Below are positions 22,782 to 47,400 of a stretch of 64,000 bases of DNA, one piece after another. The position numbers and the translations under genes were made by a program. The notes under the pieces are model-generated. The model was not told the DNA's origin and did no database searches. It saw only the letters and a program-made list of their open reading frames with translations. The stretch is taken from the NCBI GenBank assembly GCA_947629915.1, contig CANRFN010000012.1, forward strand, positions 1 to 64,000, in the 5' to 3' direction. The number at the start of each line of letters is the position of its first letter. Position 1 is the stretch's first letter. This DNA comes from an uncultured Oscillospiraceae bacterium (GTDB lineage Bacteria > Bacillota > Clostridia > Oscillospirales > Oscillospiraceae).

Positions 22782-22894
22782 GATGGTGAGATGGTGGACC
22801 GCTCCCAGCGGGTGCAGCCACCGGATGCAGCGTCTCTTCCCCATATATCCAGGCGGCGCCGAGACGTATGATTCGATACGCAAGGAGTATTACT

Positions 22895-23674
22895 ATGGAA
22901 CGGAACCAAGCAGACAAAGCCAGCAATCAGGGCACGGCCCCTTCCATGACCTTCTCCGGTCCGGATCGGAAAGCAATCACTTCCCCCTCGGAGCAAAAAG
23001 TCCTCAGCTCCCTCTCAGACCTCCTCAAGAGCAGAGATGGGGTTTGCCTGCTGAAGCCCTCCCGTCCCCTGGAGCGCAACGGCATCCTGTACTCCGCCAT
23101 GAACTGGATGGCGGCAGACCGGGGCACCGACATCAACATCCAGGTCTTTCTGGTCTCCTCCCGGGGCTCATCCCGGGGCGCTAGAAGCCACACCATGCCC
23201 CTGGCCCAGGCCAAGGCCACGGTGCAGGCCTTCTTCCGGGGCAATCCGCCGGACATCAACGGGTGGACCCCGGTGCACTTCACCTTCCCCATGAACGACC
23301 ACCCGGCCAATGGCCTTCGGACCTATGAGTTCCAGATCATCGATGCCCACGGCGAGCGGAAGCGCCTGCCCCACTTCGGCCCGGACGATGTGCAGATCGC
23401 CGGCGAGTATCTGGAAGAGGGCAAGTACCAGATGGCAGAGTTCACCCTCCACAACGGCCACCCGGGCCTGCGGGTCTCCGCCAACCGGTGGGTGGCCGGG
23501 TTCGTCACGGTGATCGCCGCCAAGAAGGAGGGCAACGAGATCCGCTACCTCTCCCGCAGCTGCCCCGCCACCCAGGGCACCAACTGGCTGATGGCCTTCT
23601 ATCGCGGCAACTTCCAGCCCGAGGGCCCCCTCTGGGGCGATGTGACCCAGAGGATCCTCAGCGAGCGCCGCTGA
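22895..23674 (+). CDS. hypothetical protein, 259 aa
   Basis: I do not recognise a family. The protein is soluble, with no signal peptide or membrane helix. The N-terminal 40 residues are polar and probably disordered; a predicted alpha/beta domain follows with notable segments FRGNPPDINGWTPVHFTFP and GHPGLRVSANRWVAGFVTVIAA. Start: ATG at 22895 with AAGGAG seven bases upstream. It is transcribed alone, with its own promoter and a very good terminator, just ahead of the TOTE-type primase-helicase gene. GC content and codon use resemble the core genes, so it is unlikely to be a recent import. Function unknown. Confidence 0.75.
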   Translation: MERNQADKASNQGTAPSMTFSGPDRKAITSPSEQKVLSSLSDLLKSRDGVCLLKPSRPLERNGILYSAMNWMAADRGTDINIQVFLVSSRGSSRGARSHTMPLAQAKATVQAFFRGNPPDINGWTPVHFTFPMNDHPANGLRTYEFQIIDAHGERKRLPHFGPDDVQIAGEYLEEGKYQMAEFTLHNGHPGLRVSANRWVAGFVTVIAAKKEGNEIRYLSRSCPATQGTNWLMAFYRGNFQPEGPLWGDVTQRILSERR

Positions 23675-23975: not shown

Positions 23976-26900
23976 ATGGCGTGGAAACAGGAACGGGAAG
24001 CGCTGCTGGCCAAGATCTGCCAGCTTGAGACGGAGAACGAAGACCTTCGGAAACTTCTGGACGCGAAGGAACATGCGCCGACTGTGCAGGCGGCAACCGA
24101 GGCTGCACCCCAGCAGCCGATGGCCCTCCCCCAACAGATGGCAGCGGTGCTCTCCCAGCTCACCGGTGTGCTGGGACAGGTCTCCGCCGTTTTGGGGCAG
24201 TATGCCGCGGGCTCGCTCTCGGTTGCAGCACCTGCCGCAACCGAGGCAGTCGCTCCCCTTCCAAAACAGGACATCCCCGGATCTGAGGAATCCCAGTCTG
24301 AGAAGACGACATCTCCCTCTGAGGCGGGTTCCGCCCCAGAGGAGCCCATCGGGGAGCCGGAAGAGAGCGTCTCCGTCCCAGATCAGATGATCGAGCAACC
24401 GGATACGACAGCAAGCCAGACGGTTGAAGCCGAGACCGCAAGTGCTATACCAGCGGATGCACCGGCAGAAGAGACAGCAGAGCCCGTGGATGCCATAGCG
24501 GCAGCGGCGGAGGCTGTCTTCGAACCCCAGCCGGAAGAAGCTGCTGTTTCGCCGGTTGAGGCGGTGGCCGAACCCGAAGCGCCTGCCGCAGGACCGGAGC
24601 AGGCAGCGGAACCAACCGAAGCGCCTGCGTTGGAACCGGACCAGCCGGAGGAAGACATTGTTACGCCGGTTGAGGCGGTGGCCGAACCCGAGGCGCCTGC
24701 TGCAGAACCGGAGCAGGCAGAGAAACCCGTTGAAACGCCCGCAGCGGAGCCGGACCAGCCGGAAGAAGCCGTTGTTACGCCGGTAGAGGCGGTGGCCGAA
24801 CCCGAGGCGAATGCTGCAGAACCGGAGCAAGCAGCGGGACCCACCGAAGAACCCGCGTTGGAGCCGGACCAGCCGGAGGAAGTGATAGTTTCGCCGGTAG
24901 AGGCAGTGACCAAACCCGAGACGCCTGCCGCAGAGCCGGAGCAGGCAGTGGAGCCCGCCGAAACGCCCGCAGCAGAACCAGACCAGCCGGAGGAAGCGGT
25001 TGCTTCGCCGGTAGAGGCGGTGGCCGAACCCGAGGCGCCTGCCGCAGAATCGGAGCAGGCAGCGAAGCCCGCCGAAACGCCCGCAGCGGAGCCGGACCAG
25101 CTGGAGGAAGCCGTGGTTTCGCCAGTAGCGGCAGCAGCCGAACCCGCAGAAGCACCTGCGGTGGAGACTGACCAGCCGGAGGAAGCGGTTGCTTCGCCGG
25201 TAGAGGCGGTGGCCGAACCCGAGGCCCCTGCTACAGAACTAGAGCAGCCCATCGCCGAGCCGGTGCAAGCCGAGGAGGCGCCGGAGGAGATCCCTGTCCC
25301 ATCTGCGGAAGCGGTCTCCGATTCTGAGGATACCGTCCCCAGTTCCGAAGAAAGTACCTCTCCGTCCGAAGCTGTCTCAGCAGACACGGCAGAGGCTTTG
25401 GACGCACCGGCTGAAGCTGCAGCCGCACAAGATGCAGATCCCGCCTCCCCAGAGGAGCCGGCCGCCCCAGAGCAAGAGGCCGCCGAGATCCTCTACAAGG
25501 TACTTCCCTTCCAGCACTTCTCCCCTTACGAGGAAGTGCCGGAGGGGCTCTCCGAGACAGCGGACGGCACTTTTTCCCTCTTTCAGGACACCCAGGATGA
25601 GACCGAAGCCCCTTCGGAAGAGACCGCAGCCGATGTCCAGGACGCACCGGAACCGGAAGCAGAGGCCGCCGTCCCCGCGGAAAACGACCCCGAGAATCCC
25701 CTCACCCTGGGCACCCGCATCCCGGACCCGGATCTGCGCATGGTGACGGCAGACAGCCCCACCGCACAGAAGCTGGACCTGTTCTGGACCTTCTTCTGCC
25801 CCCGGGAGGAGGTATACGCCCTGCGCTGGGAGGACAAGAAGAACGAAAAGGCCGGATACAACTTCAAGTGCCGGAACATCTTTGACCCCATGGTCTGCCC
25901 CAAGAGCTGGGCCTATCAGGGCAAGCACAAGCCACCGGTATCCGAGAAGGGAAAGAGCAACCCCTGTATCGGCTGTCCGGGACGGGAGTATGTGCCGCTC
26001 ACAAGAGAGGCCGTGATGAACCACCTCCGGAAGAATGCCTCCCCCACCGATGTGATCGGCATGTACTCCATTCTGCCCGGGGACATGTGCCGCTTCCTGG
26101 TTCTGGACTTCGATGAGGGGGACTGGCAGGACTGCGTGCGCACCATCCGGGAGATCTGCAGCGAGTGGACCATCCCCTGTGCGGTGGAGCGCTCCCGCAG
26201 CGGCAACGGCGCCCACATCTGGATCTTCTTCTCCGAGAATGTGCTGGCGAGAGACGCCCGGAAGCTGGGCAGCTTTCTCATCACCGAGGCCGCCAAGCGC
26301 TCCAAGGCCATGAAGCTCACCTCTTACGACCGCATGTTCCCCGCCCAGGACAGCATGCCCGCCGGCGGCCTCGGCAGCCTCATCGCCCTGCCCTTCCAGG
26401 GCGGCGCCGCCAAGGGGAGCGACCCCCTGCAGTTCAACAGCGTCTTTGTAGATGAGAACTTCCAGACCATATCGGATCAGTGGGCCTATCTGGCCGGCCT
26501 CTATCGCCTCAGCAACGCGGATCTGCTGGCCCACCTGCAGCTCCACCAGCACGAGAGCGCCACCGGCGTGCTGGTCCAAAACCAGGACGGGGACGAGGGC
26601 CAGCCGTTCCCCCGGTTCCGCAAGTTTGAGGAGAAGATCACTGCCAAGGACTTCCACGGCAGGGCCACCGTGGTCCGCTCCAACATGCTGTATATCCCTC
26701 TGAACGGCATCACCCCCCGGGCAAGGGACCGGCTCATGCGGCTGGCCACCTTCTCCAACAAGGATTTCTACAAGCAGCAGGCCATGCACCGGCTGATCTG
26801 GGGCATCCCCAGACTGATCACCGCGGCGGAGGACCGGGGCAACTATCTCGCCATTCCCAGAGGCTGTGAGAAGGCCATGGTGGACCTCTTCCAGGAGCGG

Positions 26901-28601
26901 AACATCCCGTACGCCATCGAGGACCGCACCACAACCGGCACCCCCATCGATGTAAGTTTTGTGGGGAAGCTTTGGCCGGACCAGCAGCCCGCCGCGGACG
27001 CCATCCTGAAGGGCAACCTCGGCGTGCTCTCCGCCACCACCGCCTTCGGCAAGACGGTGGTGGGAGCGTGGGTCATCGCAGAGCGGAAGGTGAACACCCT
27101 GGTCCTGGTGGACCGGGAGAGCCTGATGCAGCAGTGGGCCGAGCGGCTGGAGCAGTTCCTGCTGCTGCCGGAGCCCGTGCCAGCCGTAGACCCCAACGCC
27201 AAGCCGAAGCGGGGCCGCAAGCCCAAGGCCGTCACGGACCCCTCCCCCATCGGCCAGATCGGCGGGGGCGTCAACCGACCCACAGGGGTGGTGGACGTGG
27301 CCACCTTCCAGTCTCTCTGGGACAAGAAGACCGGCCAGGTGAACCCCATCATCCGCAACTACGGCATGGTCATCGTGGACGAGTGCCACCATGTGGCCGC
27401 AGATGTCTTCCAGCAGGTGGCGAAGGAGGCGGACGCCCGCTATCTTCTGGGCCTCAGCGCCACCCCCAACCGCCAGGACGGCAAGGGACCGCTGGTCCGG
27501 TTCATCCTGGGCCCGGTGCGCTATCGGGTAGACGCCATGGAGCAGGCGGAAAAGGACGGGCTTACCCGGGTCCTCATCCCCCGCTTCACCAACTTCCGGG
27601 AGCCCTTCAACCTGGATCACCCCTGGGAGTTCAACGATGCCTGCACCGCCATGATTGATGACGAGGAGCGCAACGCCCGCATCGTCCAGGACGTGAGAGA
27701 TGCCCTGGCCCAGGGCCGCTCCCCGCTGGTGCTCACCCAGCGGGTGGAGCACGCCAAAAAGCTGGAGTCTCTCATGACGGATCTCCCCGCCCAGGTGATC
27801 ACCCTCACGGGTAAGGACAGCTCCAGAGAGCGGCAGGCAAAACAGCAGGCCCTGCTGCACCTGCAGCCGGAGGAGCCCCTGGTGCTCATCGCCACCGGCC
27901 AGTACGCCGGCGAGGGCTTTGACCTCGCCCGGCTGGACACCCTGATGATGGTGATGCCGGTGTCCTCCAAGGACCTGGTCGCGCAGTTTGTGGGGCGGCT
28001 CCACCGGGCATATCGGGCCAAATCCACCGTCTACGTCTACGACTACGTGGACCACCAGAACACCATGCTGCTGCGGATGTATCAGAAGCGGCTGCGGGCC
28101 TATGCCGAGAACGGGTACAGCGTCCGCTCCAACTCCACGGTACCGCCCGAGGGCAACCGGCTCTTCACCGAGAAGGACTACCGCAACACCTTCCAGGACG
28201 ACCTCTCCCAGGCCAAGAGCCAGGTGGTGCTCTCCGGAAGACTCCTCACCCAGACCAAGGTACAGGACTTTCTCAAGCGCCTGCGCCCCGGCGTCTCGGC
28301 GGAGATCTTCCTCCCCGCCACCCAGGATCTCAGCGCGGAGGAGGAGACCAGCCTCGCGGCATCTCTGGACCTGCTCCACATCCGGGACATCCCGGTGCAC
28401 CGGATCCCGGGGTGCTGTCAGGAATTCGCGGTACTGGACCAGAAACTGCTGTGGTACGGCGGCCTGGACCTTTTGGGCAAGCCGGACGCAGACTGCGGCT
28501 GCATGCGCCTGCAGAGTCCGGAGCTGTCTGCAGACCTGCTGCACATCGCCGATGAGTGGCGGAAGCTGGCCGCAGACGACCAGCTGCGCCTCTTCGTCTA
28601 A
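23976..28601 (+). CDS. TOTE-type primase-helicase-PLD conflict protein
   Basis: Very large protein of 1541 residues. A short coiled coil (about 1-35) is followed by roughly 550 residues of acidic Ala/Pro/Glu sequence including a 38-residue tandem repeat (about 187-425). Next is an archaeo-eukaryotic primase domain (about 590-960) with the DFD metal motif (Asp711, Asp713) and SGNGAH (His747). An SF2 helicase follows (about 985-1385): TAFGKT (Lys1026), DECH (Asp1135-His1138), GLSATPNRQDG and QFVGRLHR. The C-terminus resembles a PLD nuclease half (FAVLDQKLLWYGGLDLLG, Asp1488), but the HKD histidine is replaced (CQEFAVLD). This matches TOTE conflict-system proteins, thought to act against invading DNA. 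The acidic repeat extension is unlike the usual ones. Start: ATG at 23976 with AAAGGGG upstream. Confidence 0.85.
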   Translation: MAWKQEREALLAKICQLETENEDLRKLLDAKEHAPTVQAATEAAPQQPMALPQQMAAVLSQLTGVLGQVSAVLGQYAAGSLSVAAPAATEAVAPLPKQDIPGSEESQSEKTTSPSEAGSAPEEPIGEPEESVSVPDQMIEQPDTTASQTVEAETASAIPADAPAEETAEPVDAIAAAAEAVFEPQPEEAAVSPVEAVAEPEAPAAGPEQAAEPTEAPALEPDQPEEDIVTPVEAVAEPEAPAAEPEQAEKPVETPAAEPDQPEEAVVTPVEAVAEPEANAAEPEQAAGPTEEPALEPDQPEEVIVSPVEAVTKPETPAAEPEQAVEPAETPAAEPDQPEEAVASPVEAVAEPEAPAAESEQAAKPAETPAAEPDQLEEAVVSPVAAAAEPAEAPAVETDQPEEAVASPVEAVAEPEAPATELEQPIAEPVQAEEAPEEIPVPSAEAVSDSEDTVPSSEESTSPSEAVSADTAEALDAPAEAAAAQDADPASPEEPAAPEQEAAEILYKVLPFQHFSPYEEVPEGLSETADGTFSLFQDTQDETEAPSEETAADVQDAPEPEAEAAVPAENDPENPLTLGTRIPDPDLRMVTADSPTAQKLDLFWTFFCPREEVYALRWEDKKNEKAGYNFKCRNIFDPMVCPKSWAYQGKHKPPVSEKGKSNPCIGCPGREYVPLTREAVMNHLRKNASPTDVIGMYSILPGDMCRFLVLDFDEGDWQDCVRTIREICSEWTIPCAVERSRSGNGAHIWIFFSENVLARDARKLGSFLITEAAKRSKAMKLTSYDRMFPAQDSMPAGGLGSLIALPFQGGAAKGSDPLQFNSVFVDENFQTISDQWAYLAGLYRLSNADLLAHLQLHQHESATGVLVQNQDGDEGQPFPRFRKFEEKITAKDFHGRATVVRSNMLYIPLNGITPRARDRLMRLATFSNKDFYKQQAMHRLIWGIPRLITAAEDRGNYLAIPRGCEKAMVDLFQERNIPYAIEDRTTTGTPIDVSFVGKLWPDQQPAADAILKGNLGVLSATTAFGKTVVGAWVIAERKVNTLVLVDRESLMQQWAERLEQFLLLPEPVPAVDPNAKPKRGRKPKAVTDPSPIGQIGGGVNRPTGVVDVATFQSLWDKKTGQVNPIIRNYGMVIVDECHHVAADVFQQVAKEADARYLLGLSATPNRQDGKGPLVRFILGPVRYRVDAMEQAEKDGLTRVLIPRFTNFREPFNLDHPWEFNDACTAMIDDEERNARIVQDVRDALAQGRSPLVLTQRVEHAKKLESLMTDLPAQVITLTGKDSSRERQAKQQALLHLQPEEPLVLIATGQYAGEGFDLARLDTLMMVMPVSSKDLVAQFVGRLHRAYRAKSTVYVYDYVDHQNTMLLRMYQKRLRAYAENGYSVRSNSTVPPEGNRLFTEKDYRNTFQDDLSQAKSQVVLSGRLLTQTKVQDFLKRLRPGVSAEIFLPATQDLSAEEETSLAASLDLLHIRDIPVHRIPGCCQEFAVLDQKLLWYGGLDLLGKPDADCGCMRLQSPELSADLLHIADEWRKLAADDQLRLFV
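24534..25253 (+). repeat. 114-bp in-frame tandem repeat
   Basis: Five full 114-bp units (38 residues, starting at 24534, 24648, 24762, 24876 and 24990), one shortened unit of 75 bp (25104) and one partial (25179). Each unit encodes a variant of the pattern PVEAVAEPEAPAAEPEQ then xxPxExPAxEPDQPEE. The exact 114-bp register is kept, so copy number has probably changed by recombination or slippage. Confidence 0.92.
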
Positions 28602-31083: not shown

Positions 31084-31989
31084 TTAATCCGAGAGGATCA
31101 CAGACTGGGTGTAGCTGTCCCCGATGTAGGTGTTCACGATCTTGGCCAGCATGTCCTCAGACAGTTTGCCCATGTGGTAATAGCAGATCACACCGTAGCG
31201 GTCCACCACCATGGACACGGGGATGGATTTCAAGCCAAGCTCTGTGCTTATGCCAGTGTTGTCCATACCAACCGGGAAGCTGATGTTTAGATTCTCAGTT
31301 GTGAGGGTGTCTTTGATCCTCGCGTCATCATCATATCCGATATCGATAGACATAGCAAAGACATCCATATCGTTCTTGTGGGCCAGGTAAGTCTGGTTGA
31401 TAAAGGGGAACTCCTGTTTGCAAGGATCGCACCAGGTGGCCCAGAAGTTCACCAGCACGAAGTCCTTCTGGATCAGGGTGTTATAGAGGTTGTGGCTCAC
31501 GCCGTTGATATCCGTGAAGGTGAAGTCCGGCATGCGGCTTCCCACGGTGAGGCCCTCGGCGATGCTCATGTCCACCAGGCTCTTGGGCGGCTCCGGCGTG
31601 GGTTCAGGGGTGGGCTCCGGAGTTGGCGCGGGAGTCGGCTCAGGGGTGGGTTCTGCAGTCGGCTCAACTGTAGGCTCCACAGTGGGCTCAGGCGTGGGTT
31701 CCGGGGTAGGTTCTGGTGTAGGCTCCGGGGTCGGTTCCGGGGTAGGTTCCGGGGTAGGTTCCGGCGTAGGCTCCGGGGTGGGTTCCGGCGTGGCCTCTGG
31801 CGTGGCCTCTGGCGTGGGCTCCGGCGTGGCCTCTGGGGTGGGCTCCGGCGTGGGTGCGGGGGTCTCCGCCGGCGCCTGGGTGGCCGGGGGCGCAGTGGCC
31901 TCGGATTGGGTGTTGCCGCCGCAGCCCGCCAGGCCGGTGATACACAGCGTCAGGGCCAGCAGCAGGGCCAACACGCGTCTCTGTTTCAT
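31084..31989 (-). CDS. TlpA-like thioredoxin-fold lipoprotein
   Basis: Lipoprotein of 301 residues. Signal peptide with lipobox LAGC (Cys23), then a Pro/Thr/Glu spacer of about 88 residues (43-130) built from PTPE repeats, then a redoxin domain (about 136-295) with active-site Cys183-Asp-Pro-Cys186 in [12 protein letters not shown]. It is probably a membrane-tethered thiol oxidoreductase held away from the membrane by the spacer. Start: ATG at 31989 with GGGAGGA upstream; the frame extends to 32160 without signal character. The redoxin domain is closely similar to those of the giant protein upstream (compare [13 protein letters not shown] with DINGEAHDLYETL), so the two genes share a domain by duplication. 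Confidence 0.92.
31600..31863 (-). repeat. PTPE-coding minisatellite
   Basis: Degenerate tandem 6-, 12- and 18-base units encoding Thr-Pro-Glu-Pro, Ala-Thr-Pro-Glu and Thr-Val-Glu-Pro repeats in the TlpA-like lipoprotein. Likely prone to length change by slippage. Confidence 0.85.
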
Positions 31990-32229
31990 AGTGGCATATC
32001 CTCCCTCTGTTTCTGGTTGGAATTGCAGATCTCGCGGTTCCATTGTACACAGCCCCGGGAAAGCTGTCAAAGAGAAGAGTGTACAGATGTGGAAGGGATT
32101 CCCTGCCCCGGTCTGTACAGTTTCCACACAGGCTTTCCGTCCTCTCTCCCCTGCCCGCATGGTACCGCGGGATGGGGAAAGGCGGGGCCCGCCGAAGCAG
32201 GCCCCGCCTTGCTGTGCAGGGAGATGAGA

Positions 32230-35200
32230 TCAGGCGTTCTTCAGTTCGAAGATCATCACATAGCCTTCCTCATAGAGGTGGTCATCGGTGTCGGCTACCA
32301 GGCCGTCCGGGCAGGAGGCCACGGAGAAGTGGGCATCGTCCGCCACGGGCACGGCGAACTCGCCGTTCTCATCGGAGTAGGTGATGGTGCAGAGGTCGCC
32401 GTTGCAGGCCTGTACCCGCACGCCCTCTACCGGGTTGCCCTCTTCGTCCACGAAGCGGACCACATAGTAGCCCTCGGGGGCGGGTTCGCCGGCGGGGACT
32501 TCGGGCGCGGGAACGGCCTCCCCCGCGGTCCAGGTGAAGGTCTGTTCGCCGCCGTAGTACAGGGCGCAGAAGTCGTCCAGGGCCGCCTCATCGGGGAACA
32601 CCAGGCAGAAGGCCAGGTACTCGCCGGTGAGGTCGTCTACGATTTCGATGCCGCCGAAGCCGTAGGCCAGGTTCTGGCCCTCTACGGCTACACTGTAGCA
32701 GGAGCCATCGTCCGAGACCAGCTCGCTGAGCTTGTAGCTGTCCATGGAGTCCTCGTCCACCAGGGTGATGTGCTCGGGCTTGCTGCCCTCCGGCAGGGTG
32801 ATGTTGAAGGTCACCTTGCCGCCGTTGGCGATATAGAGGTCCAGGTCGGTGCCGGCCAGCTCTGCCAGCTCGCCGTTGGGGTCTGAGACGTCCAGCTTGG
32901 TGGCGCCCGCTGCGGTCACGGAGAAGGCGTCAGCGAAGGGGTACACGGGGCGATTGGCCTTGAACGTCTCCGCCTCAGCGCCGGTGAGCACCTTCAGGTT
33001 GCGGATGCCGGCCATGTCCCGGCCGCCGTTGGCCATGTAGTCCTTCACATAGGTGAAGGTCAGAGTGTGCTTGCCGGCGGTGAGATCGGTGTCAAAGGCG
33101 GTCCAGTCCACCTTGCCGTAGGCGGAGACCACGGCCGCGCCGTCCAGCTCCACGGTCAGGTAGTCGTACATGTACATAGAGGAGCCGTCCTCGCAGGACA
33201 CGGTGTAGTCGAAGGAGAGCACATCGCCCTCTTTGGCTGTGAACTCGGTCTTCAAAACGGCCTTGGTGTTGTGTTTGCCGGTGTTGCCGGAGGTGAGGTA
33301 GGTTGTTCCGTCCTCCGCAGTGGCGGCCACAAAGGGCCACTCGTACTTGCTGGTGTTCTGAACCACCTTCACACCGGCGCTGGCATTCAGGGCCTTCAGC
33401 TGGTCTTCGGCGGCGGGGGTCTCGATGTCGCAGACGGTGCCAGGGAGCTCAGCGATCACGCCGGACTTGTAGTCATCCTCCACCAGGTAGGCCATCAGGG
33501 CCTCCAGCATCACCTCGGGCACTGCGGTGTCCTCGCTGTCCACGGTCACGCCCTTGCGGTCGATCACCACGGTGTAGGGGACGGCCTCGGCGCCCAGGTC
33601 ATAGAGGGCCTTCACATCGCCGGGGATGATGGGATAGGTGATCTTGTTGGCCGCGGCGAACTTGTCCAGCTGCTCGGCCTTGTCCAGCGGATTGGTGCTG
33701 TATGCCACCACGGCCACCTGGTCCTGGTACTTCTCATAGGCGGTCTGCAGATCGGTGTAGGCCTCCAGGGTGGTGTCGTTCAGCGGGCCGTAGAGCACGA
33801 TCACGGCCTTCTTGTCCTTCAGCAGGGCGTTGAGCTCCACCGCATTGCCCTTGGTGTCGGTGTACTTGAAGTTCTTTGCCACAGCGCCGTCCTTGGGAGC
33901 GCTCTTGCCGTAGTCTGCGGGGGTGCGGGTGGGGGCGTACACCCAGTCCATGGGGTTCTCCGGGTCATAGGAGTTGCTGCGGCAGAAGATGTCCGCGTTG
34001 GTCTCATCGGAGAACACGGCAATCTCATAGGTGTAGTTCTCGCCCTTGTCGTTGGTGGCCTCCAGGCTGATGTAGTTGAACACGTTGCCGGTGCCGCCCA
34101 GGGAGTCCAGCGGCACCTCTACGGTGTAGTGGTCTCCGTTCACGTTGGGGGCCAGGAGCACCACATCGCCCTTGTAGAGGTTGGTCACGGCGGCGGTCTC
34201 GGGGTCGAAGCCGGGCTCCAGCGTCACGTCCAGGGTGATGGTCTCGCCGTTGGCAATGTAGTATGCCTGGGGCACCAGGGCATCATAGCCGGCGTAGCTG
34301 GCCAGGGAGTCCCAGAAGGCCTGGGCACTGCCGTCCGTGTCGTTCATGCGGATGGCCTTGGCATCGCCTACCACCTTCGCGCTGTTCTTCTTGCCGGTGG
34401 GATAGGTGGGATTGCGCCGGAGGGAGGCATATCCCGCGGCGCCGCCCAGCACCTCCAGGTTCTTGATGCACACGCAGTCGCTGCCATCGGAGGTGTAGGG
34501 ATCCTTCTCATAGGTCAGCTTGATCTCGTGCTCGCCCTCTGCCAACTGGATGGCCAGATGGTGGAAGTCCTCGCCCCAGTCGCCGCTGAGGGTCTTCACG
34601 GGCTTGCCGTCCACATAGACCACAAAGAAGTCGTAGAGGGTCTCAGACTGGAGCTGGTAGTCCATGGAGAGCACATCGCCGGACTTGGCATCCACCGTGA
34701 AGGAGACCGCGGCAGTGGTGTTGCTGGTGTCCCAGGTGGGATCGGTACCGTCCTCCGGGGTGGCGTTCAGGGACTGGATGTAGCCGTCTTTCGCAGCGAA
34801 GGGCCACTCACTGGCGTCCTCGCTGTTCTTCACGGCGATCTTGCTGCCCGCTGCGTTGGCGGCGGCGGAGAGCTTGGCGGAGTTGTCCCGGGTGCCCTCA
34901 AACTTGGGGCCGGGGATGGCCTCCAGGATCACAGACTGCTCGTAGTCATCGCCGGTGAAGCACTCAAACAGCTGGTCGAATTTGGCGGCGGAGGGCTGGG
35001 AGCCGGCCTCGATGAAGCAGATCCGGCCGTAGCGGTCCACCGCGATGCTGGTGGGATAGGCATCGATGCCCAGCACGGTGGAGATGTCCGCCCCGCCGTT
35101 CTCCTCGACATCGGAGCCCACCGGGAAGGTCATGCCGTGCCCGGTGGCGTACTCGGTGAGGGCGTACACGTCATCGTTGGGCTCGGCAGAGAGGGCGAAC

Positions 35201-36972
35201 ACCTCGATGTCGTCCTTGTGGTTCTTGTAGGACTCCTCCAGATAGGGGAACTCCATCTCGCAGGGGCCGCACCAGGTGGCCCAGATGTTGATGAGGACCA
35301 TGTCCTTCTCCGCCAGGGTCTCGTAGAGGTCGTGGGCCTCGCCGTTGATGTCCTCAAACTGGAAGTTGGGCAGCCGCTGGCCCAGTTCGCCGCCCTCGGG
35401 GATGCTCAGGTCGATCTGGCCGGGGACCTCAGAGACGTCCATCACGTCCATCTCGAAGTACTCCTCCAGCATCTCGTCCAGGGCGTCTACGGCATCCATG
35501 TCGTAGAACAGATAGAAGCACTGGATGTCGCCGGTCTGCTGATAGTACACGGTCACGGTGGTCACCGGGGTGTCGGTGAGGGTCACGTTGTCCACATAGG
35601 TCTCATAGATGAACTTGCCCGGGTCGTCCTCAGACTCCTGGACGAAGCACTCGGAGAGCAGCGTGGAGGTGCCGCTGTAGTCGCTCTCGATGAGCACGCT
35701 GTCCGGGTCCACGCCCTCGGCCAGGGTGAACTCGAAGGTGGCGGTGGTGCTGCCCACGAGGTAGGAGGCGCTGGGGCTGTAGTTGAAGACGCTGGCCAGG
35801 CCGCCCATGTCATCGCTCACCAGGATGGGCTTGGCCTTCTCGTTGGTGATGCGCATGGAGGTCACATCCCCGTGGGGATAGACGGGCATGGCCTCCAGGG
35901 CGGCCTCGGCGGCCTCACCGGAGAGCACCTTCAGGTTGTCGATGCAGGCCGCATCATCCCCATCGCCGCTCATCTGGTCCTTGATGTACACGAAGGAGAT
36001 CTCATGAGAGCCCTCCTCCAGGGCGCAGGCGTAGGTGTCCCAGCCGGTGTCGCCGCTGAAGAACTTCACGGCCTCGCCGTCCAGATAGAGCTCCATAAAG
36101 TCGTAGCCGTACTCGGAGGAGACCTTGTAGTCGAAGGAGAGGGCGTCCCCGTCCTTGGCGGTCACGGTGGCGCTCACCACAGCCTGGGTCTCATCCACGC
36201 CGGCGTTGCTGGACTGCAGGAAAGTGCGCCCATCGACGGTGGCGGTCACAAAGGGCCAGTCCTCCTCCCCGCCGTTGGACACGGTGATGTCCTTGGCGGT
36301 TCCCAGGGCGGCGGCCAGCTTGGCGGCGTCCTCAGGCTCCACGGTGGGCTTCACGCTGGGGAAGCCCTCCAGCAGCACGGGCTCGCTGTAGTCATCGCCG
36401 ATGTAGGTGTCGAAGAGGGCTCCAAACTTCAATGCGCTCTGCTGGGCGCCGCTCTCCACGAAGCAGATGATGCCGTGCCGGTCCACCACAACGGTGGTGG
36501 GGATGTACATCACCTCAAAGTGGGTGCCCAGATCCGGGGTGTCCATGCCCACGGGGAAGGTCATGCCCATGGAGGCCACATAGGAGGCCAGCACGTCATC
36601 GGTGTCGGTGGGCTCCACAGACAGGGCGAAGACCTCCACCTTGTCCTTGTACTGCTCATAGGCCTCGGTCATGGCGGGGAACTCGCTCTGGCACGGTCCG
36701 CACCAGGTGGCCCACAGGTTGAGCAGGACCATGTCCTTCTCCGCCAGGGTGTCGTACAGATTGTATTCTTTGCCATCGTACGTGGTAAATGTGAAGTCCG
36801 GGCAACGGGTGCCGGGTTCGTTGCCCTCCGCCACATCCATGTAGATGCCCTCCGTTGGCGCGGCGACATCGCCCGCATCCGTTGCCACAGCGCCTGTGGG
36901 CAGCAGAGACAGAAGCATCATGCACGCCAGAAAGAAAGCCAGGGCTTTTCTCTTTGGATTTGGATTTACCAT
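32230..36972 (-). CDS. secreted triple-redoxin protein with Cna-B-like tail
   Basis: Protein of 1580 residues with a signal peptide (1-31) and no membrane anchor or LPXTG motif. It contains three related modules of about 450-500 residues, starting near 44, 525 and 1020. Each has a TlpA/AlkA-type redoxin domain, a jelly-roll-like domain that begins after a WPF motif, and a smaller beta domain. Module 1 has Cys91-Gly-Pro-Cys94 and module 2 the same WCGPC near 568; module 3 lacks both cysteines (LYGPLND near 1057), so it is catalytically dead. The last 60 residues look like a Cna-B/SpaA repeat (VRFVDEEGNPVEGVRVQACNGD). It probably acts in thiol chemistry outside the cell. Start: ATG at 36972 with AAAGGAG upstream. 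Confidence 0.88.
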   Translation of the reverse strand: MVNPNPKRKALAFFLACMMLLSLLPTGAVATDAGDVAAPTEGIYMDVAEGNEPGTRCPDFTFTTYDGKEYNLYDTLAEKDMVLLNLWATWCGPCQSEFPAMTEAYEQYKDKVEVFALSVEPTDTDDVLASYVASMGMTFPVGMDTPDLGTHFEVMYIPTTVVVDRHGIICFVESGAQQSALKFGALFDTYIGDDYSEPVLLEGFPSVKPTVEPEDAAKLAAALGTAKDITVSNGGEEDWPFVTATVDGRTFLQSSNAGVDETQAVVSATVTAKDGDALSFDYKVSSEYGYDFMELYLDGEAVKFFSGDTGWDTYACALEEGSHEISFVYIKDQMSGDGDDAACIDNLKVLSGEAAEAALEAMPVYPHGDVTSMRITNEKAKPILVSDDMGGLASVFNYSPSASYLVGSTTATFEFTLAEGVDPDSVLIESDYSGTSTLLSECFVQESEDDPGKFIYETYVDNVTLTDTPVTTVTVYYQQTGDIQCFYLFYDMDAVDALDEMLEEYFEMDVMDVSEVPGQIDLSIPEGGELGQRLPNFQFEDINGEAHDLYETLAEKDMVLINIWATWCGPCEMEFPYLEESYKNHKDDIEVFALSAEPNDDVYALTEYATGHGMTFPVGSDVEENGGADISTVLGIDAYPTSIAVDRYGRICFIEAGSQPSAAKFDQLFECFTGDDYEQSVILEAIPGPKFEGTRDNSAKLSAAANAAGSKIAVKNSEDASEWPFAAKDGYIQSLNATPEDGTDPTWDTSNTTAAVSFTVDAKSGDVLSMDYQLQSETLYDFFVVYVDGKPVKTLSGDWGEDFHHLAIQLAEGEHEIKLTYEKDPYTSDGSDCVCIKNLEVLGGAAGYASLRRNPTYPTGKKNSAKVVGDAKAIRMNDTDGSAQAFWDSLASYAGYDALVPQAYYIANGETITLDVTLEPGFDPETAAVTNLYKGDVVLLAPNVNGDHYTVEVPLDSLGGTGNVFNYISLEATNDKGENYTYEIAVFSDETNADIFCRSNSYDPENPMDWVYAPTRTPADYGKSAPKDGAVAKNFKYTDTKGNAVELNALLKDKKAVIVLYGPLNDTTLEAYTDLQTAYEKYQDQVAVVAYSTNPLDKAEQLDKFAAANKITYPIIPGDVKALYDLGAEAVPYTVVIDRKGVTVDSEDTAVPEVMLEALMAYLVEDDYKSGVIAELPGTVCDIETPAAEDQLKALNASAGVKVVQNTSKYEWPFVAATAEDGTTYLTSGNTGKHNTKAVLKTEFTAKEGDVLSFDYTVSCEDGSSMYMYDYLTVELDGAAVVSAYGKVDWTAFDTDLTAGKHTLTFTYVKDYMANGGRDMAGIRNLKVLTGAEAETFKANRPVYPFADAFSVTAAGATKLDVSDPNGELAELAGTDLDLYIANGGKVTFNITLPEGSKPEHITLVDEDSMDSYKLSELVSDDGSCYSVAVEGQNLAYGFGGIEIVDDLTGEYLAFCLVFPDEAALDDFCALYYGGEQTFTWTAGEAVPAPEVPAGEPAPEGYYVVRFVDEEGNPVEGVRVQACNGDLCTITYSDENGEFAVPVADDAHFSVASCPDGLVADTDDHLYEEGYVMIFELKNA

Positions 36973-37088
36973 TCTGTTAACTCCTTTCAGGCAGTTGTAC
37001 GCTGCCAGACTTGTATTTTCCCCTGTTCCTCCCCAGTGCACAGCCGAACAATATCTCCTGGTTTGTACAGGCGGAAAACTCCTGAGAC

Positions 37089-37117
37089 AGTTTAGCACAC
37101 CAAAGCGGCAGGTGCAA
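37089..37117 (-). promoter_or_regulatory. promoter of the triple-redoxin gene
   Basis: On the minus strand: TTGCAC (37117-37112), 17-base spacer, TAAACT (37094-37089). The leader is about 110 bases. Confidence 0.6.
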
Positions 37118-37225
37118 GCCAATTCCGCACATTCCGTACAATAAATTCCCAATTTTCAACTTCTTTGCGCCAGTGTCTGTGGTCGTCCACGGGGCAATGG
37201 CCTCTCCGGGGAATCCGCTTCGAAA

Positions 37226-40778: not shown

Positions 40779-42140
40779 TCACGGGGCGTCCGGCTCCAGC
40801 GGGCCTGTGAGATCGGCCAGCATGTCCTCCAGCAGCCGCTCCTGGTACCCCGCCAGTCTCTTGGCCCGCACCGCCTCCGCCACCGGGATGTGCTGGACAA
40901 CCCGGGCGCTGCTCAGCTGGTTGAAGCTGATCTCAGAGAGGGGAACCTCAGAGCGGCAGCGCTCATAGTCCTCGGGCGTCAGGCGCCAGAGGTGCACCAG
41001 GTCCCCATACCGCTCCACCATCTGGGCGGCGATGTCCAGGCCCTTGCCGTCAAAGTCGCCGGCGTAGTAGATGGCCGTGCCGGACTTCGCCAGCAGATCC
41101 AGCAGCCGCAGGGCGGCGGCGCTGGGCTGCCCGCTGGTGCACACCAGCGGGCTGTGGAACCGATCTGCGTGGTCCGTGAGCTGGGAGAACACCATCTGGT
41201 TCTCCACGCAGTACACCCGCCCGGAGGGGCTCCGGCAGCTGGAAATCCGGTTCAGATTGGCCGGGGTGAGGGTGGCGATCTCATACCCAAGCCGCAGCGC
41301 CTGCCAGGCCGGGTGCTCGCCGGTCTCGGTCTCCAGGATCAGCCCCACCTGGGCCACGGTGCTGGAGATGCTGTCCAGCAAGATGGCAAACTGCAGAAAC
41401 AGCTCCTCCCGCTCCGCCACATTATTCGGGGGAGACACCCCCTGAACCCAGGCCAGCATCTGGATGAGCAGCCGGCCTGTGAGGGTGTCCCCGTCCAGGG
41501 CGTGGGGATCGGTGGTAACCTCAGCGCTGAGTACTGCCAGCCGCACCCGCTGTCCGGGGTGCTCCTCCAGCCAGCGCAGGCACCCCAGGGCCTGCTGCAG
41601 CGCGATGCCGGCCTGTCTCGGGTCCTCCTTCAGCGCCCGGGTGAGCAGCAGCCTGCCGGGACAGCCGGGGGTTTTGAGCCCCTCCAGCCATTCCGCAGCC
41701 CTGGTGAGACCAGCGTCTGCGGCGGCCTCCCGGAGCATGGTCTCCCAGCGGGTGTCCTGCTCCTCCCGCTGCTCTTTTTTCGTCTGGATCACCGTGTGAA
41801 AGGTGCGCTCCAGGGTCTCCTTCCAGTCCGCGTCCGCAAACCGGGTCTCGGCGATGTAGCCCTCGAAGGCGGTGGCCTTGATCTTCACCGGGGCGGTGTA
41901 CCGGACCCCGGTGAACTCCCGGATGGCCTCCAGCTCCGCCTCGGTGGGATCGCTCAGCTGGATCTTCCCGGCGGCGTGGCCGTTGCGCTGATACTTCTCC
42001 AGAAGCGCCTCCAGGATCCGGCGCAGGGCCGGGCGGGCATGGAAGTACGCCGCCAGGTCCGCGCTGGCCTGATGCACCCGCTCCTCCTGGGAGGCGGTCT
42101 CCTCGAAACCGAGGGCATCGTCCGTATGGGTGTCCCTCAT
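40779..42140 (-). CDS. jetD: Wadjet JetD, TOPRIM nuclease subunit (DUF2399 type)
   Basis: Protein of 453 residues. The C-terminal TOPRIM-like DUF2399 domain contains VCTSGQPSAAALRLLDLL and YYAGDFDGKGLDIA, the acidic metal motif (DFD near residue 360) expected for the nuclease that cuts DNA in Wadjet complexes. The N-terminal part resembles DUF3323, the arm that binds JetABC. The ATG overlaps the jetC stop by four bases (CTATGA), with GGAGG nine bases upstream, so expression is tightly coupled. This is the last gene of jetABCD. Wadjet is known to restrict plasmids by SMC-driven loop extrusion followed by JetD cleavage; the assignment here rests on motifs and gene order. Confidence 0.9.
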   Translation of the reverse strand: MRDTHTDDALGFEETASQEERVHQASADLAAYFHARPALRRILEALLEKYQRNGHAAGKIQLSDPTEAELEAIREFTGVRYTAPVKIKATAFEGYIAETRFADADWKETLERTFHTVIQTKKEQREEQDTRWETMLREAAADAGLTRAAEWLEGLKTPGCPGRLLLTRALKEDPRQAGIALQQALGCLRWLEEHPGQRVRLAVLSAEVTTDPHALDGDTLTGRLLIQMLAWVQGVSPPNNVAEREELFLQFAILLDSISSTVAQVGLILETETGEHPAWQALRLGYEIATLTPANLNRISSCRSPSGRVYCVENQMVFSQLTDHADRFHSPLVCTSGQPSAAALRLLDLLAKSGTAIYYAGDFDGKGLDIAAQMVERYGDLVHLWRLTPEDYERCRSEVPLSEISFNQLSSARVVQHIPVAEAVRAKRLAGYQERLLEDMLADLTGPLEPDAP

Positions 42141-45100
42141 AGCGGGCTATCCTCCAGCAGCACCCGGTTCTTGCCGTCCCAGTGGTAGCGGAGCACCGTA
42201 ACAAAGGACGCGTTGGCCGGGCGCTGGAGCTCAGCGATGTCCATGTTGGTCACCGCCTCGTAGCAGCCCCACAGGGACTGGGAGTTCATGATGTAGTCCA
42301 GGTCCAGGTTGTTCACCAGCTCGAACATGGCGCCCACGTTCTTCTCGTCCACGCCGGCAAAGGCCTCATCCAGGGCCAGCACCATGGGGCACTCCCCGTT
42401 GGCCTTCTTGTACTGGGAGGACACGGAGGCGAAGAGGGGCAGGTACATGCTCATGGCCTTCTCGCCGCCGGAGAACTGGTTGAAGTTCTTGTCTGTGAGC
42501 TCCCGCCAGGTGTCCCCGGTGCGGTGGTAGGACAGAGTGAACACATACCAGGTGCGGTAGTCCAAGGTCTCCCGGATGAGATCCCCGTAGTTGGTGAGGA
42601 TGTCGTTGGAGGCGGCGTTGTCCCGGGCCTCTTTCACCCGGCTGCGGAAGTGGCGGGCCACCATCTGGATGTCCTCCGGCCGCAGCAGCGCCTTGTCCCG
42701 GTTTAAGAGCTCCACCAGGCGGGCGGTGTCCATCTCCTCCGGGCTCACCGCACGCTTGGGCTTCCACTCCAGCTTCAGCGTGAGGCCCATGGAGGTGTCC
42801 ACCGAGCCCATGAGGGCGGTCATGTCCTCGGTCCACTGCTGGCTCTCCGCGATCCGGGCCCGGAGCTTGTGGCTCACGGTCTCGGTGAGGATGTTCTCAA
42901 AGAGCTCCCGGTCCCGCTCCTCCAGCATCATCTGGGTGGCCTCGATGTCTGAGGTGAGGGCGTCCACGAAGTCGTAGAGGGACATGTCCCGGCCGGTCTT
43001 CTGCATCTGCACAATGTACCGCTGCCGGAGCAGGCCCGGGGCGTCCGGCGGGTCGAACATCAGGGTCACCTTGGGGTGATAGTTGTTCAGGTGCTCGTGG
43101 CTGGACTCGAACTTGGCCCGGAGGCTGTTGTTCATCTGCTCCGGGGTCTTCTCCCACATCTTCTCCGGGCCGCCCTCCCGCTGGGGTGCGGTCTCGGAGC
43201 CCCGAATCCGGGTCCAGGCCGCCCGGGCAAACTGCTCCAGGTTGGGGCTCCGGTCCGGGCTGGGATAGTTCAGCTCCGTCTCCTCCCGGAAATAGAGCTC
43301 CATCCGGGACTCGTCTTCCTCGGCGGCGGCCAGGGCGACCTGTGCCTCCTTCAGGGAGTCCTCCCCGTTGGCGGCGATCACCTCCTGTTTGCCGTGCTCC
43401 ACCTCCGCCTTCTTCTGGCGCTCCCCCTGCTCCTCGATCTCACGGGCCAGCTCGATGATCTGCTGGGCCCTGGAGCGGTTCTCCGGGTTGTCCAGGAACT
43501 CCCGCAGGGTGTTGGCGCGGTTCTCCTCCACCGCCAGCTGTCCCCGGATGCTCTCCAGGCTTCTCTGCCGTCCGGCGGCCTGGTCTCTCCACTGGTCCAG
43601 CTGGATGAGGTTGTCCTCCATGGCCTCCCTGGCCCGGCGGAGGTCCTTCTGCTGGTCCTCCAGGCTGCGGAAGATGTCCCCGTAGGCCTCGGCAGACTCC
43701 TCCGCGCTCTCATAGTCCTCCAGGGTGCAGGCGTACGGCATGCCGAAGCTGGCGTCCCGGCTCTCCTGGTTCAGGCGGGACACCTCCTGTTTGGCGGCGT
43801 TCTCGGCGGCCCGCAGCCGCTCCAGCACCCGGTTGGCCTCCTCCAGCACCCTGGCCGCCTGGTGCAGCACGTCCAATGCCTTGTCCAGGCCGGCGGGGCT
43901 TGGCATCTCGTCCCGCTCCTTGTGCAGCTGGATGATCCGGGCCAGAATGCCCTTCAGCTGCTCATCCAGTTGGTCCACCTGCTCCTGGACCTCTGCCAGC
44001 TGATTTCTCAGCTCCTGCAGCAGCCGCTCCTTGGCGGCCCTCCGGGCGGCGGCGCCCACGTAGCTGGCGGTCTCCCCTGGCCGGACCACGCTGCGGCCCT
44101 CCAGCACGCCGTTGCGGTACCGGCCGTCCGGCAGCAATGCGGTAGAGGCGGTGAGGTCTGTGGTGGAGATGCTCTCCAGGCACTCCATCACATAGTGGGG
44201 CGCCAACTTGTCCCCGTCCGGCACCAGGCCGGTGATGGGGTTTGGCACCTTGGGCCCGGGGCGCAGGAAGCGGTCTGGGTACCTCTGGTACAGCATCTGC
44301 ACCTGCCTCCACCAGGCCTCCGGCACCACCAGGGCGTCCAGCAGGCCGGTGTCCCGCAGCTGTGCCTCCAGGAGATCCCGGGCGGCCTGGTCCAGGTCCT
44401 CGGCGAAGTCCACCACCTCGTAGAGGGCGGCGTGGGGGATGCCTCTGGCCTGGAGGATGGCACGGGCCTCCTCGGTGCGCTCGTCCCGCTCCGGCTTGTG
44501 GTCCGGCTCGTTCTCCACCCGGCGGATCTCCTGGGTGAGGGCCTTCTCCTGCTGCTCGGCGGCCTTCTTCTCCGATTCCACCTTGAACCGGGCCGTGGTG
44601 AGATCCTGCTGCACCACGTCTCTCTGCCGGTCCAGCCGCTCCCGGATGGGGGTCCAGTCTGAGGGGGCGCTATATGCCACGATGGCCCGGTGGATCTCCT
44701 GGATGTCGTCTGAGGGCAGCTTCAGCTCCACGTTGGCGTCCGCCTGGCGGATAAAGCTCTCCAATAGGGCGTCCCGCTGGCTGTGCTCCTCGTCCTCGGC
44801 GGCCCGGTGCGCCGAGGACGCCTGCAGCTGCTTCTGATGGGCCTCATCCGCCTCGGCGCAGGCTCTGTCGTAGGCGTCCTTGGCGGTCTCCAGCTTCTGC
44901 AGCAGCTCTTTCGTCTTCCGGATGTCCTTCCGGCGCCGGTCCAGGGCGTTTTTCACCCGGCCCGTCTCGGCGTTCTCCCACTGGGCGGGCAGGTCCCGGA
45001 CGTACGCATCGTGCTCGTCCCCCAGCTGCAGCACCTCGTTCTCCTTCTTCAGCTTCTTGAGGCCGATGGTGAGCCCGTCCATGCCGTCCTGCACCCGCTG

Positions 45101-46234
45101 CCGCTGGTCCAGCAGCTTCCGCTCGCCGGTGCGGATGGTGCCCTGGATGGCATCCAGGCTGGCGGTCTCCTCCTGGATCCGCCGGTTGTGCTCCTCGCAG
45201 GCCCGCTCCGAATTCTGCAGCTGCTCCTGTTTCGCGTTGAGGTCGTCCTCGCCCAGGGCCAAACGCTTGGCCTTGGCGGTCTCCAGGCGCTGGGCGGCGT
45301 CCTTGGCCTCCTCCTCCAGCTTCAAAAGGCTGGCGTGGGTCTCCTCCAGCAGCATCTCCGTCTCCCGGAGCTTTTTCTTGCACTGCCGGGTGGCGCCCCG
45401 GCTGTCCAGATAGGCCTTGCCCTTGGTGCCCAGCATGTACCGGTTATAGCGGTCCAGCTCCGTCTTGATGCTCTCCGCGTCCTTCAGGGAGTCCCGGAAG
45501 CCCTTCATCTCCGTCTCCAGCTCGTCCATGCGCTCCATGGTGCTCACCATGGCGGACAGGTCCTCATCAGACAGGACCTGGAGGGAGTCGTTGAGCAGCT
45601 TGATGAGCTCGGTGGGCTTGAAGCTGTCCTTGTTGGAATTCAGCTTGTTGGCCCGGACCTTGATGAGCAGGTTCACCAGCTGCTCAAACTGGCGGATGTC
45701 CCGGAAGCCGAAGACCCGCTCGTTCACCAGCTGCTTGTACACTCCGGGGCTGTCTGCCCAGTCCTCGGGGCTGTTCAAGAGGTTTTTCATCTTCAGCCGG
45801 CTGAGGGGCAGCAGCTGGTCTCCCACCCGCTCGATGAGGTCCATGCCATCGTAGCCGATCCGGCGGCCGTCCCGGAGGCAGAAGCCCCAGAAGTCCATGT
45901 TCTTGCCCCGGACGGCCCGCATGCCGATCCCCACGGTGAGGTACATCTCCACGTCTGGCTTCTTGAACTCCAGGTACAGGTACGCGGTGGCATCGTCCTT
46001 GTCGTCCCCCAGGAGGTAGTACTCCATCTTCCGGTCCCGGCTGCCGAAGGGGTCCAGCCGCTCCGGGCGCCGGTCTCCGTCCAGGATGAAGGGGATAAAG
46101 CTCATGGTGGTGACGGACTTGCCCGAGCCGTTGTGTCCCCGGATCAGGAAGTGTCCCTGGTCTATGATAAATTCCTCTCTGTCGTAATACCAGAAGTTCA
46201 CAAGGCCCAGCCTATGCATTCTCCAGCGGCTCAT
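42137..46234 (-). CDS. jetC: Wadjet JetC, SMC-like ATPase (TIGR02680 type)
   Basis: MukB/SMC-like ATPase of 1365 residues, motor of the Wadjet complex. The N-terminal head has the Walker A motif GHNGSGKS (33-40) and the YLLGDDKDD segment. Long heptad-rich coiled coils (about 230-470 and 690-1060) flank a hinge-like globular part near 560-690. The C-terminal head has the ABC signature FSGGEKAMSMYLPLFA and Walker B with catalytic Glu (MVLALDEAFAGVD). Length and motifs match the TIGR02680 family. Start: ATG at 46234 with AGGAGG six bases upstream; it overlaps the end of jetB by 23 bases. Coding potential is strong and uninterrupted. Confidence 0.94.
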   Translation of the reverse strand: MSRWRMHRLGLVNFWYYDREEFIIDQGHFLIRGHNGSGKSVTTMSFIPFILDGDRRPERLDPFGSRDRKMEYYLLGDDKDDATAYLYLEFKKPDVEMYLTVGIGMRAVRGKNMDFWGFCLRDGRRIGYDGMDLIERVGDQLLPLSRLKMKNLLNSPEDWADSPGVYKQLVNERVFGFRDIRQFEQLVNLLIKVRANKLNSNKDSFKPTELIKLLNDSLQVLSDEDLSAMVSTMERMDELETEMKGFRDSLKDAESIKTELDRYNRYMLGTKGKAYLDSRGATRQCKKKLRETEMLLEETHASLLKLEEEAKDAAQRLETAKAKRLALGEDDLNAKQEQLQNSERACEEHNRRIQEETASLDAIQGTIRTGERKLLDQRQRVQDGMDGLTIGLKKLKKENEVLQLGDEHDAYVRDLPAQWENAETGRVKNALDRRRKDIRKTKELLQKLETAKDAYDRACAEADEAHQKQLQASSAHRAAEDEEHSQRDALLESFIRQADANVELKLPSDDIQEIHRAIVAYSAPSDWTPIRERLDRQRDVVQQDLTTARFKVESEKKAAEQQEKALTQEIRRVENEPDHKPERDERTEEARAILQARGIPHAALYEVVDFAEDLDQAARDLLEAQLRDTGLLDALVVPEAWWRQVQMLYQRYPDRFLRPGPKVPNPITGLVPDGDKLAPHYVMECLESISTTDLTASTALLPDGRYRNGVLEGRSVVRPGETASYVGAAARRAAKERLLQELRNQLAEVQEQVDQLDEQLKGILARIIQLHKERDEMPSPAGLDKALDVLHQAARVLEEANRVLERLRAAENAAKQEVSRLNQESRDASFGMPYACTLEDYESAEESAEAYGDIFRSLEDQQKDLRRAREAMEDNLIQLDQWRDQAAGRQRSLESIRGQLAVEENRANTLREFLDNPENRSRAQQIIELAREIEEQGERQKKAEVEHGKQEVIAANGEDSLKEAQVALAAAEEDESRMELYFREETELNYPSPDRSPNLEQFARAAWTRIRGSETAPQREGGPEKMWEKTPEQMNNSLRAKFESSHEHLNNYHPKVTLMFDPPDAPGLLRQRYIVQMQKTGRDMSLYDFVDALTSDIEATQMMLEERDRELFENILTETVSHKLRARIAESQQWTEDMTALMGSVDTSMGLTLKLEWKPKRAVSPEEMDTARLVELLNRDKALLRPEDIQMVARHFRSRVKEARDNAASNDILTNYGDLIRETLDYRTWYVFTLSYHRTGDTWRELTDKNFNQFSGGEKAMSMYLPLFASVSSQYKKANGECPMVLALDEAFAGVDEKNVGAMFELVNNLDLDYIMNSQSLWGCYEAVTNMDIAELQRPANASFVTVLRYHWDGKNRVLLEDSPL

Positions 46235-47399: not shown

Positions 47400-47400
47400 C

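What the first reader, a model, noticed from the sequence alone, without database searches (positions are those of the whole stretch)
24534..25253. Acidic 38-residue tandem repeat grafted onto a TOTE-type protein
The N-terminal third of the primase-helicase protein is built from five full and two partial units of exactly 114 bp. The register is preserved while the sequence varies, so copy number has probably changed recently. TOTE proteins as I know them have short coiled-coil N-termini, not a repeat-built acidic arm. Possible roles: DNA mimicry, a spacer, or an evasion surface. These roles are inference.
Basis: partly seen in the sequence, partly recalled or inferred. Interest (0 to 1): 0.72.

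Follow-up and report, generated by a model that had tools for sequence, protein, structure and literature searches.

The report
Acidic repeat arm on bacterial primase-helicase
A gut bacterium's primer-making and DNA-unwinding enzyme carries a long, floppy, strongly negatively charged arm, partly built from tandem repeats, which only its one close relative shares; the arm probably shields or tethers the enzyme, but this is untested.

Summary
The repeat is real: five full 114-bp (38-aa) units at 24528-25097, then a shortened and a truncated one, inside a 1541-aa ORF (23976-28601 +). Codon shuffles of the arm never approach it. The core is an AEP-TOTE/CAPP-like Prim-Pol, an XPB/UvsW-like helicase and a PLD-like domain whose HKD residues are lost. 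The array is half of a ~490-aa disordered, acidic arm (net -124, no Arg) inserted between conserved N-terminal helices and the Prim-Pol. All complete homologues examined (over 40) have only 20-98 residues there. The one exception is a syntenic sister species with 83% core identity. Its arm is longer (621 aa, net -185) and shares homologous flanks, but a different segment (79 aa) was amplified. So the arm is ancestral to this pair and lengthened separately in each by in-frame duplication. Units differ from each other at synonymous sites as much as the two species do, so most copies are not recent. The gene is not part of a TOTE system: the genome has no TBP. My best guess at function is a disordered polyanionic tether that restrains non-specific DNA engagement; a plain spacer and a tolerated expansion remain live. 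New variant of a known kind.

The parts
23976..28601 (+). whole ORF, 1541 aa: N-terminal helices, acidic arm, Prim-Pol, SF2 helicase, degenerate PLD-like domain
   Evidence: Pfam; structure models
23979..24071 (+). N-terminal coiled-coil helix (aa 2-32), the ancestral N-terminus shared with many homologues
   Evidence: AF2 helix with pLDDT 82-90; same-type coil in homologues
24123..24206 (+). second helix (aa 50-77), conserved in the sister species (QQMAA-L-QLT--L-QVS-VLGQ)
   Evidence: AF2 helix with pLDDT 65-73; alignment with L049
24216..25685 (+). acidic arm (aa 81-570), predicted disordered; aa 86-571 carries net charge -124 with 6 Lys and 0 Arg
24528..25097 (+). five full tandem units of 114 bp (38 aa), net -9 to -11 each
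25098..25172 (+). sixth unit, internally shortened to 25 aa
25173..25250 (+). seventh unit, truncated; shares a 56-bp exact repeat with the start of unit 5
25251..25494 (+). non-repetitive acidic segment; homologous to part of the 79-aa unit that the sister species amplified
   Evidence: local alignment exceeds 1000 of 1000 shuffles
25509..25583 (+). conserved short motif FQHFSPxxE...DGxFxLF at the C-terminal end of the arm
   Evidence: shared with L049, exceeds 1000 of 1000 shuffles; slight rise in pLDDT
25767..26525 (+). Prim-Pol (AEP-TOTE, PF22548); catalytic DxD, H and D residues and Cys residues invariant among 19 homologues
   Evidence: CAPP structure match Z 22.4
26976..28010 (+). XPB/UvsW-like SF2 helicase; Walker A GKT, DECH and QxxGRxxR present
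28113..28565 (+). C-terminal PLD-like domain; the HxKx4D motif reads C-Q-E-F-A-V-L-D at 28416-28439

Best explanation
The 38-aa array is the amplified part of a long, intrinsically disordered polyanionic tether. The tether joins an N-terminal helical (probably self-associating) module to a Prim-Pol/XPB-type helicase motor. Shown by sequence and prediction: the arm is predicted disordered, very acidic, specific to one pair of related species, inserted at one place, and lengthened in each species by in-frame duplication of different segments. Inferred: selection acts on bulk length and negative charge rather than on sequence. Inferred too: the arm works as an electrostatic gate and spacer. It keeps the heads of an oligomer apart and competes weakly with nucleic acid for the DNA-binding channel, so only preferred substrates (for example ssDNA or forked foreign or replicating DNA) displace it. 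This is like the unstructured, DNA-displaceable trigger loop of the SF2 helicase DrmA in DISARM, with charge and length in place of a specific loop.
For: AF2: helices 2-32 and 50-77, then arm pLDDT about 40 with no secondary structure. Arm 486 aa, net -124 (K6, R0); sister arm 621 aa, net -185 (K4, R2). The arm is the only part of the gene that does not align at DNA level with the sister contig, where flanking genes are 86-87% identical and the core 84%. N-flank, post-array segment and FQHFSP motif of the arm are homologous between the species (0 of 1000 shuffles each); the array itself only marginally (6 of 1000). Units under purifying selection: pN/pS 0.39 versus neutral 0.81, 2 of 1000 simulations as low. 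Prim-Pol and helicase motifs intact and core dN/dS 0.23, so the gene is under selection to function. Precedent: DrmA's disordered trigger loop occludes the DNA site and acts as a selectivity filter (PMC9142583).
Against: No contact between arm and core was tested; arm and core were modelled separately. The core of the armed proteins is not more basic than that of unarmed homologues (net +2 and +11 versus -3 to +23), so there is no sign of charge co-evolution. Lys/Arg gain within the units is not significantly below neutral expectation (3 observed, 5.2 expected, 205 of 1000). Only two species carry the arm, so the parallel lengthening rests on n = 2. Self-association of the N-terminal helices is inferred.
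Confidence: 0.42

Rival explanations
1. Plain entropic spacer: the arm only separates the N-terminal helical module from the enzymatic heads; charge merely keeps it soluble and extended.
For: Position between two predicted folded parts; Pro/Glu-rich, predicted disordered; length varies by in-frame duplication while both ends are conserved.
Against: A net charge of -124 to -185 with almost no Lys/Arg is more extreme than a spacer needs; all homologues manage with 20-98 residues.
Confidence: 0.28
2. Tolerated low-complexity expansion: GC-rich Ala/Glu/Pro codons slipped and duplicated in a region where insertions do no harm; no function.
For: Arm evolves fastest in the gene; arm GC3 is 0.62 versus 0.89 in the core, and 0.52 versus 0.82 in the sister, suggesting weak constraint; the same genome carries other coding repeats (TPEP/SPEP-type and others) in probably exported proteins.
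Against: Units show purifying selection (pN/pS 0.39, 2 of 1000 neutral simulations); the arm has persisted in two species and is longer, not decaying, in the sister; both ends are conserved.
Confidence: 0.22
3. DNA mimic or evasion surface: repeats decoy DNA-binding phage inhibitors or vary an exposed surface.
For: Strong acidity; repeat unit differs between the two species.
Against: No predicted fold that could mimic DNA; no sign of diversifying selection among units; no partner known.
Confidence: 0.05
4. Assembly artefact in repeat number.
For: 222-contig assembly; copy number cannot be checked against reads here.
Against: Longest exact repeat in the array is 56 bp and full units differ by 10-25%, so ordinary reads resolve it; an independent assembly of the sister species also has a long repetitive arm.
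Confidence: 0.03

Closest known systems
Non-CRISPR CAPP_A-Helicase type Prim-Pols (PMC8211822)
   Same: Prim-Pol domain followed by a helicase; Prim-Pol fold matches Marinitoga CAPP (7nqf, Z 22.4); relatives lie among defence or mobile genes
   Different: No Cas1 in the genome; ~490-aa acidic arm; degenerate C-terminal PLD-like domain
AEP-TOTE domain proteins (Pfam PF22548) and TOTE (TPR, OB, TBP, Effector) conflict systems
   Same: AEP domain family (E 4e-72)
   Different: No TBP gene in the genome, no TPR/OB/TBP genes among the neighbours scanned, so a family domain without the system
DISARM DrmA trigger loop (PMC9142583)
   Same: Unstructured segment of an SF2-helicase defence protein; a displaceable DNA-site gate there, proposed to be so here
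   Different: DrmA's loop is residues 176-232 and, as described, not repeat-built; a different helicase family; the comparison is functional analogy only
XPB/UvsW-type SF2 helicases
   Same: Helicase fold (Z about 20-21) with intact motifs
   Different: Fused to Prim-Pol and PLD-like domains

Membership tests
PF22548 AEP-TOTE Prim-Pol | profile match over the curated cut-off with catalytic DxD...H...D | tested here: met
   242.9 bits versus cut-off 27; residues invariant in 19 homologues
TOTE conflict system | TBP-like protein | tested here: not met
   PF00352 absent from the whole genome, reported 100% complete
TOTE conflict system | TPR-OB protein next to the effector | tested here: inconclusive
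   none among the Pfam-scanned neighbours from about 8 to 46 kb; several neighbours have no Pfam hit and no genome-wide search was made
CRISPR-associated Prim-Pol (CAPP) | operonic with Cas1-Cas2 | tested here: not met
   PF01867 absent from the genome
CAPP_A-Helicase architecture (non-CRISPR) | Prim-Pol followed by helicase in one chain, Prim-Pol related to Marinitoga CAPP | tested here: met
   architecture as described in PMC8211822
PLD nuclease | HxKx4D catalytic motif | tested here: not met
   C-Q-E-F-A-V-L-D in window and L049; intact HxK in L005, L008, L010, L034, L035, L038-L040
Structured DNA-mimic proteins | folded acidic surface replacing DNA | tested here: inconclusive
   arm predicted disordered, pLDDT about 40, no secondary structure; a two-sequence prediction only

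The most novel reading that the evidence does not exclude
A Prim-Pol/helicase defence enzyme that lost its PLD nuclease residues and gained a repeat-extendable polyanionic arm. The arm acts as a tunable electrostatic gate, with repeat number setting the threshold for engaging DNA, and was lengthened independently in two sister species.
Probability: 0.2. Interest if true: 0.65.

Novelty: new variant of a known kind. Interest (0 to 1): 0.38.

Why it matters
If the arm gates DNA binding, repeat number would be a simple genetic dial on a nucleic-acid-processing (possibly defence) enzyme, changeable by slippage or unequal recombination. The pair also gives a clean natural experiment: two related species share a locus and a core enzyme and hold different solutions to a long acidic arm, with many armless homologues as controls. 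If the arm is only a tolerated linker, the finding is an ordinary case of fast-evolving disordered repeats.

Tried and rejected
Viral contigs: no relative of the core. Phages: only helicase-level similarity. Plasmids: homologues at about 40% identity over the core, N-termini not examined. A search of the whole own genome with the arm found only itself, so the unit is not a dispersed element. Search for charge compensation in the core: none. The window protein ends in QLRLF, a beta-clamp-like motif, but the sister and others do not, so I dropped it. Paper searches for AEP-TOTE and for PrimPol-helicase-PLD fusions returned nothing useful. The structure search used the whole 971-aa core, so the PLD-like assignment of the C-terminus rests on the HxKx4D motif in homologues, not on a fold match.

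Full report
OBSERVATION. The window ORF 23976-28601 (+) encodes 1541 aa. TRF finds a 114-bp period at 24527-25146, score 799. In frame there are five full 38-aa units (24528-25097), a 25-aa shortened unit and a truncated one. Shuffling the arm's own codons never gives comparable periodicity (identity at most 0.50 versus 0.86; TRF at most 65 versus 799), so it is not a by-product of Ala/Glu/Pro-rich composition. The strongest lag is 228 bp, two units. Consistent with that, units 1 and 3 end in PALEPD while 2, 4 and 5 end in PAAEPD, which suggests a dimeric step in the amplification.

ANATOMY. Pfam places AEP-TOTE at aa 598-850 and an SF2 helicase at aa 1001-1345. A 19-sequence AF2 model of the core (mean pLDDT 75) matches the Marinitoga CAPP Prim-Pol (Z 22.4, 205 residues, rmsd 2.7) and XPB/UvsW helicases (Z about 20-21, with large rmsd for whole-chain alignments). 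Prim-Pol and helicase motifs are intact. The C-terminal domain carries a PLD-type HxKx4D motif in many homologues, but here H and K are C and E; several other Oscillospiraceae lineages are degenerate too (Y/R, N/R, T/R). At the N-terminus, AF2 gives helices at 2-32 and 50-77, then about 440 residues with pLDDT near 40 and no secondary structure. The arm (aa 86-571) has 130 acidic and 6 basic residues.

HOMOLOGUES. Core homologues from the same family, class and phylum and from other phyla have 20-98 residues before the Prim-Pol, often a coiled coil of the YEELLxKYxxLLxENxxLKxE type or a small alternative N-terminus. Among 29 of 391 class genomes and 37 of 398 phylum genomes with PF22548, no other open frame exceeds 1061 aa. 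The exception is L033/L049, an Oscillospiraceae MAG of the same genus (83% identity over the aligned core). It has a 1677-aa protein with a 621-aa arm of net charge -185. In the core tree the two armed proteins form one fully supported clade on a long stem of 1.47 substitutions per site. They share gene order on both sides. Five other members of the genus have the neighbouring histidine kinase and response regulator without the Prim-Pol gene nearby, so the gene probably settled at this site in the ancestor of the pair.

HOW THE ARM EVOLVES. Flanking genes and the core align at 84-87% nucleotide identity; the arm does not align. Yet the N-flank of the arm, the post-array segment and the FQHFSP...DGxFxLF motif are homologous (0 of 1000 shuffles each), while the array and the sister's 79-aa repeats are only marginally alike (6 of 1000). 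The sister amplified a different segment (3 x 79 aa), one that includes the segment lying unrepeated just after the array in the window. The simplest history is an ancestral acidic arm lengthened separately in each lineage. Unit-to-unit dS averages 0.40 against 0.44 for the core between the species, so most duplications are about as old as the split; one 56-bp exact repeat is younger. Units are under purifying selection (pN/pS 0.39 versus 0.81 expected). That simulation assumes a star phylogeny of units, which overstates independence.

CONTEXT. Neighbours in the window are a GH42, a histidine kinase and response regulator, two hypothetical proteins, a weak methyltransferase-like match and a phospholipase-C-like protein; there is no TBP or Cas1 in the genome. 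Armless relatives lie near restriction-modification, AbiH, Schlafen-type, relaxase and integrase genes, consistent with a mobile or defence life for the family. In 464 kb of this genome the only other comparable acidic Pro-rich stretches in convincing genes are Thr/Ser-Pro-Glu linkers of what look like exported proteins; 'exported' here is judged by eye.

MECHANISM. Shown: insertion site, composition, predicted disorder, lineage specificity and separate lengthening. Inferred: selection on length and charge, self-association of the N-terminal helices, and gating of DNA binding. The gate is argued by analogy with DrmA's trigger loop (PMC9142583). It is weakened by the absence of charge co-evolution in the core and by there being only two armed species. 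A spacer or a tolerated expansion is not excluded.

VERDICT. It is a new variant of a known kind of protein.

Noticed in passing
window 28416-28439: C-terminal PLD-like domain has lost the HKD His and Lys (C and E instead); several Oscillospiraceae homologues are degenerate with other residues, while deltaproteobacterial, Sporomusa and some Oscillospiraceae relatives keep HxK.
   Followed up: partly
window 40782-46234 (-), probably continuing to about 48880: Wadjet type II genes JetD2 (E 5e-119) and JetC2 (E 0) about 12 kb downstream; two further minus-strand ORFs (46212-47453, 47401-48882) are candidates for JetB and JetA, not tested.
   Followed up: partly
window 31087-32160 (-): Redoxin/TlpA-like, probably lipoprotein, with a TPEPTPEP repeat linker; a different composition from the arm.
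   Followed up: no
window 32233-37152 (-): 1640-aa ORF with three AhpC/TSA-type thioredoxin-fold matches in one chain.
   Followed up: no
window 24216-25685 and L049 arm: GC3 of the arm is 0.62 versus 0.89 in the core (0.52 versus 0.82 in the sister): codon usage in the arm departs from the rest of the gene in both species.
   Followed up: no
window 24383-25387 (-): 334-aa antisense ORF over the array, open only because the repeat lacks stops in that frame; not taken as a gene.
   Followed up: no
window 22868-23674 (+): 268-aa protein without any Pfam match, on the same strand just upstream and 94% identical in the sister species; possible partner of the Prim-Pol gene.
   Followed up: no
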